Positions 51,270-57,633 of a stretch of 64,000 nucleotides of DNA are shown here, one piece after another; the first letter of the stretch is position 1; each line of letters opens with the position of its first letter. Made by a program: the position numbers and the translations under genes. The stretch is taken from assembly GCA_902609095.1 (NCBI GenBank), contig CACLQQ010000004.1, positions 1 to 64,000 of the forward strand, read 5' to 3'. The stretch is from an uncultured Bacteroidota bacterium. GTDB lineage: Bacteria; Bacteroidota; Bacteroidia; Chitinophagales; Saprospiraceae. A model generated the notes under the pieces. That model was not told the origin of the DNA. It worked only from the letters and a program-made list of their open reading frames with translations, and made no database searches.

Positions 51270-52058
51270 TCAATAATAATTTATTGGGTTCGTCACCACT
51301 TTCGTACAACGGGCTGCAAATTTAGGAAATTTCTCTTTAAGAAGTTTAAATAAAAGTTCGATAGTAAAGTACTCACTTTCATAATGTCCAATGTCCGCTA
51401 TAATTATCTTACCGTTTGCATCAAAGAATTCATGATACTTATAATCAGAGGTGATAAAAATGTCTGCTCTTGCTGAGATAGCGTCTGCTAACAAAAAGCT
51501 ACCTGATCCACCACATACAGCGACCATACTGATTTTTTTATTGATAAGGGCTGTATGTTTAATCGTAGCGAGTAACATAGCTTGTTTAATGTGTGCTAAG
51601 AATTTCTTGGGAGCCATAGGTTCACTTAGTGATCCGAGGATACCTGAGCCAATAGTCTTATTTTCTGGAGTCTTAGGTTTGAGAATTTCACAATCTATCA
51701 GGCCGATCTTTTCTGCTATTTTTTGATTAACACCATGATCTAACACATTATCAAGGTTAGTGTGGATGGCATAGATTGCTATGTCATTTTTGATTGCTTT
51801 AACGACAACTCTATGAACATAATTAGAGGGATCAAACTGCTTAATTCCTGAGAATACGATAGGATGATGTGATATGATCAGATTATATCCTAATTCTATT
51901 GCTTCGTCTACAACGGCCTCTGTGCAATCGAGAGATATAAGAGCCCCTCCAATACTTTGATCGAGATTACCAAAGATCAATCCTGAATTATCGTAGAATT
52001 CTTGAAGATGTGGTGGAGCAATACTTTCGAGGTGATTGATAATATCCCGTAAAATCAT
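51270..52058 (-). CDS. Nif3-like dinuclear metal centre protein (YbgI/GTP cyclohydrolase I type 2 family)
   Basis: The 262-residue protein has the metal-binding His residues of the family (NLIISHHPIVFSG, AIHTNLDNVLDHGVN, DIGHYESEYF). It lacks the inserted PII-like domain that lengthens many Bacteroidota homologues to about 365 residues. The start overlaps the rfaE2 stop by ATGA. Biochemical role unsettled. Confidence 0.92.
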   Translation of the reverse strand: MILRDIINHLESIAPPHLQEFYDNSGLIFGNLDQSIGGALISLDCTEAVVDEAIELGYNLIISHHPIVFSGIKQFDPSNYVHRVVVKAIKNDIAIYAIHTNLDNVLDHGVNQKIAEKIGLIDCEILKPKTPENKTIGSGILGSLSEPMAPKKFLAHIKQAMLLATIKHTALINKKISMVAVCGGSGSFLLADAISARADIFITSDYKYHEFFDANGKIIIADIGHYESEYFTIELLFKLLKEKFPKFAARCTKVVTNPINYY

Positions 52059-52525
52059 AATGATTTAATTCTATTTATAATATCCGTAGTTGAGATGGAA
52101 TCAATAAGAGATATGGATACGACTTTCCCCCCATATTTTGATACCAACTGCGCTTCAGGTAGCTGACTTAAGTCATATTCTGCTCCTTTAGCAAAAATAT
52201 CTGGCTTGATTATTTTCAACTCTTCTATTGGGTTTATACTGTTGAACATAAGAATGGCATCTACAAATCTTAAAGAGGATAGCAAGTTAGCTCGATCCTG
52301 TTCTGAATAGATAGGTCTACCTACTCCCTTGAGCTGTTTTACGGATTCATCGCTATTCAGACCTACAATAAGAATATCGCCATATTGGGAAGCTTCTTTG
52401 AGACTATGGACATGTCCAACATGCAGTAAATCAAAGCAGCCATTGGTCCAAACAACATTCTTTTCTCCACATATATCTTGTTTTAATTCTTGTGGGTCTA
52501 AGTAGATTTGTTTCTTGAAACGCAC
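52055..52525 (-). CDS. rfaE2: D-glycero-beta-D-manno-heptose 1-phosphate adenylyltransferase
   Basis: The 156-residue nucleotidyltransferase makes ADP-heptose for LPS core. It has the cytidylyltransferase motifs WTNGCFDLLHVGHVHSLKEA (HxGH), DSVKQLKGVGRPI and SISTTDIINRIK (the ISTT motif). It is the separate C-terminal half of the bifunctional HldE; no kinase half lies nearby. The start is GTG 52525 within a TAGTG overlap with the YbhN-like stop. ADP-heptose supply suggests core LPS is retained. Confidence 0.9.
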   Translation of the reverse strand: MRFKKQIYLDPQELKQDICGEKNVVWTNGCFDLLHVGHVHSLKEASQYGDILIVGLNSDESVKQLKGVGRPIYSEQDRANLLSSLRFVDAILMFNSINPIEELKIIKPDIFAKGAEYDLSQLPEAQLVSKYGGKVVSISLIDSISTTDIINRIKSL

Positions 52526-53556
52526 TATCTATTGGCAAAAGGTAAAAGAATGAGGCTGATTAATCCGAATAAGATATTGCAAAATATATTGATAGCAAAA
52601 AAGGTGATCATAGCAATGCTAAAAGCACTAATCTCATTTATCTCCAATAATTTGAGGGACTCAACAAGCATAGCATGGTAACTTCCCATCCCCCCAGGAG
52701 ATGGAAAAACCATACCCAATGCAGCGAAATCAAAGCACAATAGCGAATCTGTCAAAGAAATATGTTCTGTCGGTGCAAACGACAAGAAACCCATCCAATG
52801 CATAGCCACATAGTTGAACCATATACCTACAGAGTAAAAAACAAATAATGGTAAATTGTTAACAGATGTGAGTGAGGCTATGCCCTCAATAAATCCATTG
52901 ATTATAATTATAAATTTTAAGAACCAGTTTGAAGGATCTTGTGATTTATTGAGATGTCTGTAAAGGAATATCACACCGACTAATCCAAGGATTCCAACTA
53001 TACCCAACATGATTATCATCTTAGTATTAATATTTAGGTTTTGCTCAAAGTAGTTTAACATGAGCTCGCTGTGTATCAATAGTCCTAACAGGATTAAAGT
53101 AATTAAACAGAGGAAATCTATTATTCTTCCTAAAACTATAGTCCCAAGGACTGTTTCATAAGGGATTTTCTCGTATTTAGAAAATAAACCGGCCCTTATA
53201 AGTTCACCCATTCTAGGAAGACCAAGATTAGCGAAATAGCCTACCATGACAGTATAGAAGGCATTGGCTAGTCCAGTTTGATAACCCATTGGCTTGAATA
53301 ACATGACCCATCTTAGTGCCCTAAACAAACAGCTTATCATGTATGCCACACACATCGATAAGATCCACCAATAATTTGTACTCTTAAAATCTGATATAAG
53401 TTTATCCCAAAGACTGCAGTTTTCAGGAGAGATACGTTTAATTGCGCAATCTTCTGCATACGACGAGGCTAAGCTCTGCCAAAGAAAGTACAATATAACT
53501 GCTCCTAAAGAGCCAAAAATGATAGTCTGTACGATGCTTTTTCTTACTTGGCTCAA
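52525..53556 (-). CDS. YbhN/AglD-like membrane protein (lysylphosphatidylglycerol synthetase TM family)
   Basis: A 343-residue protein with about eight helices and the UPF0104 core (YFANLGLPRMGELIRAGLFSKYEKIPYETVLGTIVLGRIIDFL, FPSPGGMGSYHAMLVESL). It is the flippase-like membrane domain without the lysyl-transferase part. Members are suspected to move lipids or lipid-linked glycans. It overlaps rfaE2 and follows panD after 10 bases. Confidence 0.85.
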   Translation of the reverse strand: MSQVRKSIVQTIIFGSLGAVILYFLWQSLASSYAEDCAIKRISPENCSLWDKLISDFKSTNYWWILSMCVAYMISCLFRALRWVMLFKPMGYQTGLANAFYTVMVGYFANLGLPRMGELIRAGLFSKYEKIPYETVLGTIVLGRIIDFLCLITLILLGLLIHSELMLNYFEQNLNINTKMIIMLGIVGILGLVGVIFLYRHLNKSQDPSNWFLKFIIIINGFIEGIASLTSVNNLPLFVFYSVGIWFNYVAMHWMGFLSFAPTEHISLTDSLLCFDFAALGMVFPSPGGMGSYHAMLVESLKLLEINEISAFSIAMITFFAINIFCNILFGLISLILLPFANR

Positions 53557-53565
53557 GAGTAAAGG

Positions 53566-53910
53566 TTATATGCCGTTATGATCATCGGGAAATACATTAA
53601 TCGAGGTAAACTCAGGATGCTCCTCAGGAGTAATCCAAGCGTAAGATATAATGATTATTTTATCTCCTTCTCCCATTTTGAGAGCTGCGGCTCCATTAAT
53701 ACTGATGATGCCAGAACCTTTTTCACCTTTGATTACATAGGTTTCTAGTCGTTCTCCATTATTAATGTTGAGAACTTGTACTCGTTCTCTTTCATATATA
53801 TTGGCGGTCTCCATCAGTATTTCGTCAATGGCGATACTGCCCATATAATTTAGATTGGCCTCCGTTATCGTAGCTCTGTGAATCTTGGATTTTTTGACCT
53901 GTATGAACAT
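53566..53910 (-). CDS. panD: Aspartate 1-decarboxylase precursor
   Basis: The 114-residue proenzyme makes beta-alanine for pantothenate. The self-cleavage site is the Gly-Ser in NYMGSIAIDE (about Gly24-Ser25), producing the pyruvoyl group; the NGER and NGAAAL segments are typical. panC lies 90 bases upstream in the same direction, so the pathway genes are together. Confidence 0.95.
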   Translation of the reverse strand: MFIQVKKSKIHRATITEANLNYMGSIAIDEILMETANIYERERVQVLNINNGERLETYVIKGEKGSGIISINGAAALKMGEGDKIIIISYAWITPEEHPEFTSINVFPDDHNGI

Positions 53911-54000
53911 GTGTAAATCTTATGTGCTCACTTGAGCATCGCAAAAGTAAGTTTAATAGTCAGTTTATATTTTATAATCTACTGGCTTTTAGTAAGAAGG

Positions 54001-54867
54001 TTAATGAATATTGTCTGAGGCAATGAGTCTCATATTATCTATGAGCCTTACATCACCAGCCCAGACGGCGGTACACGCCACTACCTCACTAACACCATTT
54101 ATATGATCAATAGTTTCAAGCGTATGTCCATTAACAATTTCGAAATATGCTGGCTTGAATCCTGGGATATTCAGATACTCTAAAGCTTTAGTTTCTATCT
54201 CTGAGATACTTTTATGATTTATCCACTCTTTAGCCTGAGAAAGAACTCTAAATAGAATGGATGCATCATCTCGATGTTCTTTTGTTAAGCGTCTATTACG
54301 AGAGCTCATCGCTAAACCATCATTTTCTCTGATGATTGTACAAACCACTAATTTGGTCTTTATTGCCAGCTCTCGAATCATGTGTCTTATAATTGTGAAC
54401 TGCTGATAATCTTTTTGACCCATATATAGATGAGTAGCGGGAACGATATCAAGTAGTCTTTTAACAACTTGAACAACACCTGCAAAGTGACCCGGCCTAT
54501 GAGGTCCTTCCATCTTAGCGTCTAACCCTTGGAGATCTAAGGATACTTCAAATTGTGCCGCCCCACCAGGATAGATTTCATCTATTGTTGGTAAAAATAC
54601 AATATCACATCCAGCCTCTTCTAAGCCCTTACAATCTGCCTCAATTGTCCGAGGATACTTATCCAAGTCTTCAGTATTATTGAACTGTGTAGGATTCACA
54701 AAAATGCTACTGACCGTGACATCATTTGCGTTTTTAGATTGTTCTATCAGAGAATAATGTCCTTGATGAAGTCCGCCCATTGTAGGGATAAAACCAATCG
54801 TTTTACTTGCTGATTTAAGATCAGAGATATAAGCTAAAGCTTTTTGCGCATTGTAAATACGCCTCAT
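54001..54867 (-). CDS. panC: Pantothenate synthetase
   Basis: PanC joins pantoate and beta-alanine using ATP. Motifs: FIPTMGGLHQGHYSLIEQS (HxGH), SIFVNPTQFNNTEDLDKYPRT, GQKDYQQFTIIR and SSRNRRL (KMSKS-like). I place the start at ATG 54867 (MRRIYN), one base after the upstream stop; the track's GTG 54876 would overlap it. Length about 288 residues, normal. Confidence 0.95.
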   Translation of the reverse strand: MRRIYNAQKALAYISDLKSASKTIGFIPTMGGLHQGHYSLIEQSKNANDVTVSSIFVNPTQFNNTEDLDKYPRTIEADCKGLEEAGCDIVFLPTIDEIYPGGAAQFEVSLDLQGLDAKMEGPHRPGHFAGVVQVVKRLLDIVPATHLYMGQKDYQQFTIIRHMIRELAIKTKLVVCTIIRENDGLAMSSRNRRLTKEHRDDASILFRVLSQAKEWINHKSISEIETKALEYLNIPGFKPAYFEIVNGHTLETIDHINGVSEVVACTAVWAGDVRLIDNMRLIASDNIH

Positions 54868-54868
54868 A

Positions 54869-57031
54869 TTAATCACTTAGTTTTCCATACCACTCGGATA
54901 AAACCTCTTGTCCTAATTTCCCTTGTGGGGTATAATCTCGTTCGGGGTATCCTTCGTGGCCCAGTCCATTAGGAAACCATTTCCATAAGAATCCTCCTTG
55001 CCACCATTCTTTATCCCAAAAGGCACCGTATAGTGCTGCAAGTGCATTGGCTTGTGCTTTTTCATTGATGCTAAGTTCATGTACTTTTTTCTCCAACTCC
55101 CAGGTTTTTCCAGCTGCACCGTCTACACTGAGATAGCCATATTCTGTGAATAGAATTGGTCTATCATGTTTCCTAGAATATTTGGAGAGTTTAGAAACTA
55201 TTTTGCGCCACTTCAGAGATAGGTAGAGCTGGTTAGGTGTATCAAAATCAGTAAGGGGAAAATAAGCACTAAGACCTATGTAATCGAGTTGATCCCAAAA
55301 TGGGATCAACTCATAACTATCCCAATTCGCAGAATAGGTGAGCTTACCAGAGTATTTTGATTTTATTTCTTTTATTAGCTCTCTCCAAAATTGCTCTCTT
55401 TTTTGAATAGCTAATCTGAACTCTGTACCTACACATAGCATTTCAACTTTCTGTTCTATGGCGATATTTACGAAGTTCATAATATAAGCCTTATAGCTAT
55501 CTTCCCAAATTTTCCATTCACCTTCAGAGTCGTAGTCCATTTCACCAACCCATGTGCCTCGCATCCAAACCTGTGGTTTAAGCATTATCCTTAGTCCCTG
55601 GGCCTGAGCTAATTCTATGGATTTTATGATTCCATCCTTTCGTTCTCCCCACCATTGTTGCTTAGAACCGAAGGAAACCTCAGGATCGTCTTGTCGGTTG
55701 AAGGCATATGGTACTAAGGCTATCCAATTGGCATTCACTCGTTTAATGGCCGGCATAGGATCTGTTTCGAATGCTCTCGGTGGAGCCACAACAGTTAGAC
55801 CACCAATTTTTTCTTGTCCTAAGCACATCACGGTTATACAGAGCATAGCTGTAGTTATTGCTCCATGTCGGATGACTTTATCCAACACCTTATACAAACC
55901 TGATAATCGTAAGCCCTTAAGTAGGCTGATAGTTGTGATCATAAGCATTGGAAGAGTGAATTCTTGTGGTAACATACTCTGACCAAATAACACGATCGAA
56001 CAAGAAAATATGGTTAAGAAAATCAAAATTTTCTTCAGCTTTCCATTTGTGTTTAATCTGTAGTAAAGGAGCATCCATGGTGTGGTCCACAATAAATTCC
56101 AATTTCGTTTACAGACTTGATGATCAGTAAGGAACCACATAAACAGAAATATTAGAGCGCAAATAAATAATCCGACAAACCAGATTCGATCTAATTTCCA
56201 CCACCCATCTGACTCTCCAGATATGTATAAGAGTAAAAAAAAAATCAGTTCAAAAACTAATAATGCTCTAAATAAAAAGTATGGAGTTAAAAAAGATCCA
56301 TTGTCGTGTTCAGCGGGAAAGGCTAATATGGTGACCTTATTACTAACTATATTACCTGTGTTCGAGCGAGTATTGTCAAGATATGATTCGAAATATTCAG
56401 GTAAGAACATTTGATCGGAGACAGTTGTAATCTTATCAGTTCTCGCTCCTAAGATGAGGTCCATGCCAAATTGGGACCAAGGCCTATGAGGTGTGTAATG
56501 ATGCAGTAAGCCTCTAAATGTGACAGTTTCTTTAGGCTCTTCTGGGTAATTCAAGGGATCGATATATGCTGATAATAGATCCCTTAATCGTGTTACACAA
56601 TTATCAAAGAAAAAATCATAGAGATAATCTCGATTGTCGGGTTTAACTATCTCGGTTAGAGCTTCTATTATTTCTTCTTTTTCACTGGTGCTTAGGTTTA
56701 AAACTTGCTCCCTAACATCTCTTTGTTCGAACTCATAATCTACTAAAAACCTGTCATACATAGTACCCCTAACTTGGTAGAGTAATTTTCCTCTCAGAAA
56801 CTTCAGTATAAAATTTGGGGTATCAAAATCAAAAGTCCCATAGTTAAAGACCCAATCAATATTCTTAGTAGGATCCTGAACCCGAATCGCAGAATGGCCA
56901 AAAAGAGTATAAATCTGATCTCCAGGACCACAAGTCAGAATGCTCACGGTCGTATTATTAACAGTAATAGATTGAGCATTTAAGCTTATCAAACTAAACC
57001 ATGAGACGATATATAAGAAGATTATTCTCAT
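54869..57031 (-). CDS. Fusion of a DUF4105 membrane protein with a GH113-like glycosidase
   Basis: One 720-codon frame. Residues 1-about 375 form a DUF4105/Lnb-type protein: signal peptide (WFSLISLNAQ), periplasmic part (TLFGHSAIRVQDP, FFFDNCVTRLRDLL with the likely Cys/His-type site) and several helices (255-370). Residues about 405-720 form a GH113-like TIM-barrel glycosidase (MLKPQVWMRGTW, CVGTEFRLA with acid Glu, LFTEYGYLS with the second Glu). The two are usually separate genes. Between them, about residues 386-405 (IRHGAITTAMLCITVMCLGQ) look like a buried second signal peptide, so this may be a gene fusion or loss of a stop; internal initiation near MLCITV is possible. Starts by ATGA overlap with the PaiB-like stop. 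Confidence 0.82.
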   Translation of the reverse strand: MRIIFLYIVSWFSLISLNAQSITVNNTTVSILTCGPGDQIYTLFGHSAIRVQDPTKNIDWVFNYGTFDFDTPNFILKFLRGKLLYQVRGTMYDRFLVDYEFEQRDVREQVLNLSTSEKEEIIEALTEIVKPDNRDYLYDFFFDNCVTRLRDLLSAYIDPLNYPEEPKETVTFRGLLHHYTPHRPWSQFGMDLILGARTDKITTVSDQMFLPEYFESYLDNTRSNTGNIVSNKVTILAFPAEHDNGSFLTPYFLFRALLVFELIFFLLLYISGESDGWWKLDRIWFVGLFICALIFLFMWFLTDHQVCKRNWNLLWTTPWMLLYYRLNTNGKLKKILIFLTIFSCSIVLFGQSMLPQEFTLPMLMITTISLLKGLRLSGLYKVLDKVIRHGAITTAMLCITVMCLGQEKIGGLTVVAPPRAFETDPMPAIKRVNANWIALVPYAFNRQDDPEVSFGSKQQWWGERKDGIIKSIELAQAQGLRIMLKPQVWMRGTWVGEMDYDSEGEWKIWEDSYKAYIMNFVNIAIEQKVEMLCVGTEFRLAIQKREQFWRELIKEIKSKYSGKLTYSANWDSYELIPFWDQLDYIGLSAYFPLTDFDTPNQLYLSLKWRKIVSKLSKYSRKHDRPILFTEYGYLSVDGAAGKTWELEKKVHELSINEKAQANALAALYGAFWDKEWWQGGFLWKWFPNGLGHEGYPERDYTPQGKLGQEVLSEWYGKLSD
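55286..55312. repeat. Perfect 12-bp inverted repeat with 3-base loop inside the fusion gene
   Basis: GAGTTGATCCCA and TGGGATCAACTC flank AAA, within the codons for YELIPFWDQLDY of the glycosidase half. It could form a strong hairpin in the mRNA. No T-tract follows, so it is not a standard terminator; probably protein-coding coincidence. Confidence 0.85.
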
Positions 57032-57633
57032 CTGAGCATTTCCATTTCGTTGGCGATTCCTTGCTCTAATTCTGTTCCGAATTGTTTCAGCGGAGAGATG
57101 ATCTCCCTATAGTCTCTGTCTTTTCTGTTTTGGCTTAGCTTATAGGTGGCTTTCACTCGGTTAATTATCATTCTGAATCCTATCAAGCCATTGTGATGAG
57201 CTTTTAGTTCTTTGTTACTAAAGTCAATAAATTTGAATCGGTTTGGTCGATTGGATTCATACTTTTTAACCATGTGTTCTATGGATTGATAGAGCTCTTG
57301 ATCACCTATCTTTTGAGCAGTGCTATGATGTACAGCTATATAGTTCCATGTAGGAACATTAACATGATCGTAACACGAAGATGAAATGTATGCATGGCTA
57401 TTTATAAAAATGGCTAATATCTCATGTTCACCATCAAAGTTATGCGATAATTGATTTGCTTTGAATATGTGCCAAGAAATATAAGACTGTTCCGTATCAT
57501 AGTGCCATGACAATGGAATGTGTGAGGCGGCTATACCATCTTTTAGTGAAACCAGTGTAGCGAAAGAATACTTCTTAACATAAGAACTAACTACAATAGT
57601 GTTCTCTGGCTTTAAGATTCTTGGTACATACAT
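57028..57633 (-). CDS. PaiB-like FMN-binding protein
   Basis: A 201-residue flavin-reductase-fold protein of the PaiB family: MYVPRILKPEN start, SLKDGIAASHIPL, HIFKANQLSHNFDGEHEILAIF, VPTWNYIAVH. PaiB proteins were described as regulators of sporulation/protease genes in Bacillus; here a flavin- or heme-binding redox role is as likely. Clean, full length, 20 bases after metG. Confidence 0.88.
   Translation of the reverse strand: MYVPRILKPENTIVVSSYVKKYSFATLVSLKDGIAASHIPLSWHYDTEQSYISWHIFKANQLSHNFDGEHEILAIFINSHAYISSSCYDHVNVPTWNYIAVHHSTAQKIGDQELYQSIEHMVKKYESNRPNRFKFIDFSNKELKAHHNGLIGFRMIINRVKATYKLSQNRKDRDYREIISPLKQFGTELEQGIANEMEMLR

What the first reader, a model, noticed from the sequence alone, without database searches (positions are those of the whole stretch)
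54869..57031. DUF4105 membrane protein fused in frame to a GH113-like glycosidase with a buried signal-like segment
The two halves are normally separate. The junction (about residues 375-410, near base 55870) has a hydrophobic stretch ending MCLGQEK that looks like the second protein's own signal peptide, suggesting loss of a stop or a programmed polyprotein. If real, it links an inner-membrane DUF4105 protein to a periplasmic glycosidase.
Basis: partly seen in the sequence, partly recalled or inferred. Interest (0 to 1): 0.55.

Follow-up and report, generated by a model that had tools for sequence, protein, structure and literature searches.

The report
Fused lipoprotein acyltransferase–glycosidase gene
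In two related genera of Saprospiraceae bacteria the only copy of the Lnb-type lipoprotein N-acyltransferase gene is permanently joined to a secreted sugar-cutting enzyme, and the second enzyme's old export signal survives inside the join, where it can still carry the chain across the membrane and probably still be cut.

Summary
ORF 54869-57031 (-) is a 720-residue fusion of an Lnb-type lipoprotein N-acyltransferase (the former DUF4105) and a GH113 glycosidase, joined by a short hydrophobic segment ending LG^QEK. It is not an assembly error. The same uninterrupted fusion is in all nine searched genomes of two genera (3/3 and 6/6), at 48-58% identity, and both halves are monophyletic, so it arose once.

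Gene order shows how. Relatives keep two separate clusters, metG-(paiB)-lnb and GH113-panC-panD-ybhN-rfaE2-nif3. The fused genomes carry one merged cluster with the breakpoint inside this gene. The buried segment matches the signal peptide of stand-alone GH113s. All nine keep small-residue^Gln (the Bacteroidetes 'Q-rule' signal-peptidase-I site) directly before the GH core, against 5.9% of ordinary internal membrane segments. The five Lnb helices should end in the cytoplasm, so this segment is needed to bring GH113 back to the periplasm.

Most likely it is a two-enzyme precursor cut by signal peptidase I into membrane Lnb and soluble periplasmic GH113. The fusion and its topology logic are well supported; cleavage is inferred. 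An uncut, membrane-tethered enzyme is the main rival. It is a new variant of known parts, not a new kind of system.

The parts
54869..57031 (-). Lnb-GH113 fusion ORF, 720 aa
   Evidence: conserved in 9 genomes
56975..57031 (-). N-terminal signal peptide of the Lnb half, residues 1-19, MRIIFLYIVSWFSLISLNA^Q (also Q-rule)
   Evidence: read from the sequence
56540..56971 (-). Lnb_N periplasmic (permuted NlpC/P60-like) domain, residues 21-164
   Evidence: PF13387, E 2.6e-27; H46, D139, D143, N144 and C145 invariant in 104/104 Lnb rows
56894..56896 (-). Presumed catalytic His46 (FGHSA)
   Evidence: 104/104
56597..56599 (-). Presumed catalytic Cys145 (FDNC)
   Evidence: 104/104
55913..56302 (-). Lnb five-helix membrane domain, residues 244-373
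   Evidence: PF25221, E 4.3e-13; helices in the model
55862..55912 (-). Basic linker after the fifth helix, residues 374-390, predicted cytoplasmic
   Evidence: linker net charge +3 to +7 in all nine fusions
55817..55861 (-). Buried signal-peptide-like segment, residues 391-405 (AITTAMLCITVMCLG), predicted sixth membrane segment
   Evidence: short model helix 391-401 in a low-confidence stretch
55814..55819 (-). Predicted signal peptidase I site G405^Q406
   Evidence: [AGS]^Q in 9/9 fusions
54926..55756 (-). GH113 (beta/alpha)8-barrel domain, residues 426-702
   Evidence: PF22612, E 7.7e-46; PDB 4cd7, 3civ, 5ylh
55421..55423 (-). Glu537, aligned with the Glu of CVGCE in GH113 mannanase 3civ/4cd6
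   Evidence: 57/57 GH113 rows; alignment
55142..55144 (-). Glu630, aligned with the Glu of FFMEVG in 3civ/4cd6
   Evidence: 57/57 GH113 rows; alignment
54001..54876 (-). panC, overlaps the fusion's 3' end; first gene of the GH113-side cluster
57028..57633 (-). paiB-like FMN_bind_2 gene; last gene before lnb on the Lnb-side cluster
   Evidence: PF04299
57653..59800 (-). metG, Lnb-side cluster

Best explanation
A single rearrangement in the ancestor of two Saprospiraceae genera joined the end of a metG-paiB-lnb cluster to the start of a GH113-panC-panD-ybhN-rfaE2-nif3 cluster, inside coding sequence and in frame (shown by gene order and trees). The gene makes one chain: N-terminal signal peptide, periplasmic Lnb catalytic domain, five membrane helices ending in the cytoplasm, a basic cytoplasmic linker, then the old GH113 signal peptide as a sixth membrane segment that returns the chain to the periplasm, then the GH113 barrel (topology inferred from helix count, charge and homology). 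Signal peptidase I then probably cuts at [AGS]^Gln, leaving Lnb in the inner membrane and releasing a soluble periplasmic GH113 whose new N-terminal Gln would be cyclised as for other Q-rule substrates (inferred). The two enzymes most likely keep their separate jobs: Lnb completes lipoprotein acylation, and the GH113 acts on an unidentified periplasmic or envelope glycan.
For: Nine full-length fusions without stops, in 3/3 and 6/6 genomes of two genera. Both halves monophyletic: GH half 98/93, Lnb half SH-aLRT 100 in the quick tree. Merged gene order in the fusions; separate clusters in relatives: panC follows stand-alone GH113 in at least nine Saprospiraceae genomes, metG is near 12 and paiB near 4 of 82 stand-alone Lnb genes, and none of those 82 loci holds panC or GH113. 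The nearest stand-alone GH113s start with Q-rule signal peptides at the same distance from the core (L112 ..ITA^QDKIKGIT, L113 ..VSA^QEKIDGLT, L123 ..SQS^QSKITGIT). [AGS]^Q at the junction in 9/9 fusions, against 28/477 (5.9%) internal membrane segments and 58/130 (45%) N-terminal signal-like segments in the same loci. Lipoprotein-type stand-alone GH113s lack that Gln (L004, L114), so the barrel does not need it. Basic linker +3 to +7 in all nine. Model: two confident domains joined by a flexible stretch at 381-410. Q-rule background: PMC5837995.
Against: No cleavage data. SignalP was not available; the [AGS]Q test is my own, was framed after seeing the alignment, and the nine sequences share one ancestor, so 9/9 is not nine independent events. 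In the window protein -3 is Cys and in several others Leu, Ile or Met, not the best signal peptidase I residues. Some ordinary helices carry [AGS]Q too (TM4 in L001, L031, L032).
Confidence: 0.62

Rival explanations
1. The fusion is not cut. The buried signal peptide has become a permanent sixth helix and GH113 works tethered to the outer face of the inner membrane beside Lnb.
For: The same topology data fit; some stand-alone GH113s of the family look like lipoproteins, so a membrane-anchored GH113 is tolerated; the two domains are joined by a flexible linker.
Against: The hydrophobic segment is short (about 11-15 residues) and weakly hydrophobic, more like a signal peptide than the Lnb helices, and [AGS]^Q is kept in 9/9 although the segment itself has diverged.
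Confidence: 0.27
2. A functional partnership: selection fused the enzymes because GH113 acts on glycans linked to lipoprotein maturation or on the same membrane site.
For: The fusion has been kept since the common ancestor of the two genera with all presumed catalytic residues intact.
Against: The merged gene order explains the fusion as a breakpoint accident; none of 82 stand-alone Lnb loci has GH113 nearby; a conserved cleavage site would separate the two products.
Confidence: 0.12
3. Two overlapping products: GH113 is also made from an internal start codon before the buried signal peptide.
For: In the window GTG at residue 382 (24 codons before the Gln) would give a plausible signal peptide; L033, L117 and L119 have ATG 23 codons before the Gln and L111 has ATG 19 before.
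Against: L031, L118 and L121 have no ATG, GTG or TTG between 14 and 30 codons before the Gln, so this is not a conserved mechanism.
Confidence: 0.05
4. Assembly or frameshift artefact: two genes falsely joined.
For: The window's genome is an incomplete draft (59% complete).
Against: Same in-frame fusion in eight other assemblies at 48-58% identity.
Confidence: 0.01

Closest known systems
Lnb lipoprotein N-acyltransferase of Bacteroides (PF13387 + PF25221; NCBIfam NF051878; Armbruster 2024, PNAS, known here through citations in PMC12994826 and PMC13103446)
   Same: Whole domain order, invariant His and Cys, five-helix membrane domain
   Different: Ends after the fifth helix in all stand-alone relatives; here a GH113 follows. 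Scores below the curated cut-off of the equivalog model, as do the stand-alone Saprospiraceae Lnb proteins tested.
GH113, Bacteroidetes clade 5 (PMC9032380)
   Same: Barrel fold and both aligned catalytic Glu; secreted; clade of unknown substrate. Clade membership is inferred from taxonomy, not placed in that paper's tree.
   Different: Those have their own N-terminal signal peptide; this one is reached through a membrane protein.
Bacteroidetes Q-rule signal peptidase I substrates (PMC5837995, PMC10653852)
   Same: Hydrophobic core then small residue^Gln
   Different: The site lies about 400 residues into a multi-spanning protein, not at the N terminus.
Bradyrhizobium FbcH, cytochrome b/c1 polyprotein cut at an internal signal sequence (recalled from memory; no paper held)
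   Same: Membrane protein followed by a second exported protein with its own internal signal peptide
   Different: There the two products belong to one complex and processing was shown by experiment; here the enzymes are unrelated and cleavage is only predicted.

Membership tests
Lnb lipoprotein N-acyltransferase | Lnb_N plus five-helix Lnb domain above Pfam cut-offs | tested here: met
   95.9 vs 22.2 bits and 50.0 vs 25.2 bits; all eight other fusions too
Lnb lipoprotein N-acyltransferase | Conserved His and Cys of the NlpC/P60-like site | tested here: met
   H46 and C145 in 104/104 rows
Lnb lipoprotein N-acyltransferase | NCBIfam equivalog cut-off (550 bits) | tested here: not met
   270.7 bits; three stand-alone Saprospiraceae Lnb proteins also only 221-274, so the cut-off does not cover this family
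Lnb lipoprotein N-acyltransferase | N-acylates diacyl lipoproteins | not testable with these tools
   Supported indirectly: sole Lnb_N gene in 5/5 fusion genomes tested, and no Lnt over cut-off in G001, G002, G251, G487
GH113 | Family profile over curated cut-off and fold | tested here: met
   157.2 vs 27 bits; Foldseek to 4cd7 E 5.4e-24, TMt 0.85
GH113 | Acid/base and nucleophile Glu | tested here: met
   E537 and E630 in 57/57 rows, aligned with 3civ/4cd6
GH113 | Beta-mannanase activity | not testable with these tools
   Bacteroidetes clade 5 members tested showed none (PMC9032380)
Q-rule signal peptidase I substrate | Hydrophobic core with basic flank before it, then small residue^Gln | tested here: met
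   9/9 fusions
Q-rule signal peptidase I substrate | Cleavage and pyroglutamate formation in vivo | not testable with these tools
   needs proteomics
Signal-peptidase-processed bacterial polyprotein (FbcH-like) | One precursor yields two mature proteins | not testable with these tools
   predicted only

The most novel reading that the evidence does not exclude
A bacterial two-enzyme precursor in which the cell's only Lnb-type lipoprotein N-acyltransferase is released from an unrelated glycosidase by signal peptidase I at an internal Q-rule site, with the GH113 joined to Lnb because it trims glycans on lipoproteins or at the acylation site. This would give the orphan Bacteroidetes GH113 clade its first functional lead.
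Probability: 0.1. Interest if true: 0.75.

Novelty: new variant of a known kind. Interest (0 to 1): 0.5.

Why it matters
Bacterial polyproteins cut at internal signal peptides are, to my knowledge, rarely described. Here the ancestral gene orders survive in relatives, so one can see two clusters collide and the joined product stay workable because a signal peptide happened to be at the join. It shows that a signal peptide can be both a topology adapter and a cleavage site, gives a clean test of whether signal peptidase I obeys the Q-rule inside multi-spanning proteins, and warns that Lnb and GH113 annotations will be mixed up in these genomes.

Tried and rejected
Assembly error: rejected by conservation. 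Adjacent ancestral genes with simple stop loss: not seen; relatives keep the genes in different clusters. Internal translation start as the general route: rejected, three fusions have no start codon in range. Lipobox at the buried cysteine (VMC): rejected on sight, Met at -1 and the Cys is not conserved. A backup Lnb or Lnt: no second Lnb_N in five fusion genomes; Lnt over cut-off only in G598, an assembly with 5% contamination. Fusions elsewhere in the phylum: none among 396 sampled genomes at E 1e-85, a threshold that could miss distant ones. Paper searches for the FbcH precedent found nothing; the Lnb paper itself is not held.

Full report
What is there. The open frame 54869-57031 (minus strand) encodes 720 residues without interruption. 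Pfam gives three consecutive families, all above their curated cut-offs: Lnb_N 21-164, 5TMH_Lnb 244-373 and GH113 426-702. Lnb_N is the renamed DUF4105. That family has been shown by others to be the lipoprotein N-acyltransferase of Bacteroides (Armbruster et al. 2024, not held here; cited in PMC12994826 and PMC13103446). The GH113 half aligns end to end with GH113 beta-mannanases of known structure (E about 1e-32; Foldseek TMt 0.85 to 4cd7). The residues expected to be catalytic are intact: H46 and C145 in 104 of 104 Lnb rows, E537 and E630 in 57 of 57 GH113 rows.

It is real and conserved. Searches of the window's family, order and phylum and of public genomes found the same uninterrupted fusion in nine genomes: all three of the window's genus and all six of a second genus of the same family. 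Pairwise identity to the window protein is 48-58%, depending on the alignment. L032 lies in a 1.26 Mb contig with 64x coverage. Both halves of the nine fusions are monophyletic against separate relatives (GH half 98/93; Lnb half SH-aLRT 100 in the quick tree, as the careful search did not finish), so one fusion event is enough. No other full-span match was seen, within the sampling and thresholds used.

How it arose. Elsewhere in the family the two genes are apart. Stand-alone GH113 is followed by panC in at least nine genomes (G019, G021, G067, G080, G093, G191, G280, G312, G436), and in longer loci by panD, ybhN, rfaE2 and nif3. Among 82 loci with stand-alone Lnb, 12 have metG and 4 have a paiB-like gene nearby, and none has panC or GH113. 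The nearest Lnb sister pair, L074 and L085, has paiB directly before lnb. In the window the order is thrS-metG-paiB-[Lnb::GH113]-panC-panD-ybhN-rfaE2-nif3, which is the two clusters end to end. The Lnb part keeps the K-x-x-R motif at the end of its fifth helix, where separate Lnb proteins stop some 5-15 residues later. A linker of about 15 residues then leads into the GH113 signal peptide. Whether the rearrangement made the fusion directly, or first placed the genes side by side, is not known.

The join. The closest separate GH113s begin with ordinary signal peptides that end directly before the barrel: L112 ..GLISGITA^QDKIKGIT, L113 ..CIKVSA^QEKIDGLT, L123 ..FFASQS^QSKITGIT. The fusions show the same thing inside the chain..VMCLG^QEKIGGLT in the window..GNISA^QNKIGGIT in L118..AMSA^QKINGIT in L121. 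Small residue then Gln is the Bacteroidetes Q-rule for signal peptidase I (PMC5837995). In a count over the fetched loci, [AGS]Q followed 9/9 fusion junctions, 58/130 single N-terminal hydrophobic segments and 28/477 internal segments of multi-spanning proteins. This is a home-made measure, framed after seeing the alignment, and the nine share ancestry. The stronger point is that the hydrophobic stretch has diverged while the small residue and the Gln stay, and that separate GH113s of the lipoprotein type do without that Gln (L004, L114).

Topology. Lnb has its catalytic domain in the periplasm and five helices after it, which puts its C terminus in the cytoplasm. The linker behind the fifth helix is basic in all nine (+3 to +7), as expected for the cytoplasmic side. 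A glycosidase attached there would be stranded in the cytoplasm without another crossing segment, and the old signal peptide supplies it. The AlphaFold model (pLDDT 90.9, pTM 0.67) has two confident domains and a weak stretch at 381-410, with a helix of only 11 residues at the join, short for a permanent membrane helix. These are inferences from sequence and model, not measurements.

Function. Four of the fusion genomes that are at least 93% complete (G001, G002, G251, G487) have no Lnt above its cut-off. The fused gene is the only Lnb_N gene in the five genomes tested. It is therefore probably the cell's lipoprotein N-acyltransferase, which would explain why it is not lost. The GH113 belongs, by taxonomy, to the Bacteroidetes clade 5, whose tested members cleaved none of the mannans tried and are seldom in polysaccharide-utilisation loci (PMC9032380). 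Its substrate is unknown. The accidental-looking origin argues against reading the fusion as proof that the enzymes cooperate.

Verdict. A real, conserved, single-origin fusion created where two gene clusters met, most likely processed into two enzymes by signal peptidase I (0.62), with a permanently tethered GH113 as the main alternative (0.27). The parts are known families; the architecture is a new variant. Shown here: the fusion, its conservation, its single origin, the merged gene order and the conserved junction motif. Inferred: topology, cleavage, pyroglutamate, and the activities of both enzymes.

Noticed in passing
window 51270-54876 and loci L147, L150, L152, L155: A conserved Saprospiraceae cluster GH113-panC-panD-ybhN-rfaE2-nif3 (followed by a ~260 aa zinc-ribbon/coiled-coil-like protein, by eye) ties the orphan Bacteroidetes GH113 to pantothenate and envelope genes rather than to polysaccharide uptake.
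   Followed up: partly
L111/L135, L117/L159, L119/L160: panD is missing between panC and ybhN in several fusion genomes of the second genus; whether it has moved or been lost was not checked.
   Followed up: no
L159:2346-3233 and L160:10514-11398: The rfaE2-like ORF is about 295 aa here (stop to stop) against 156 aa in the window, which may be an extra domain or only an open frame upstream.
   Followed up: no
G598 contig C790:2394-3632: One fusion genome (5% contamination) also holds an Lnt above the family cut-off; either contamination or a genome with both Lnt and Lnb.
   Followed up: no
fusion residues 379-390, window 55862-55897: The linker carries a motif like [KR]W(I/L/M)[DN][KR] shared by most of the nine fusions and absent from separate Lnb proteins; the model shows a short helix at 379-386.
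   Followed up: partly
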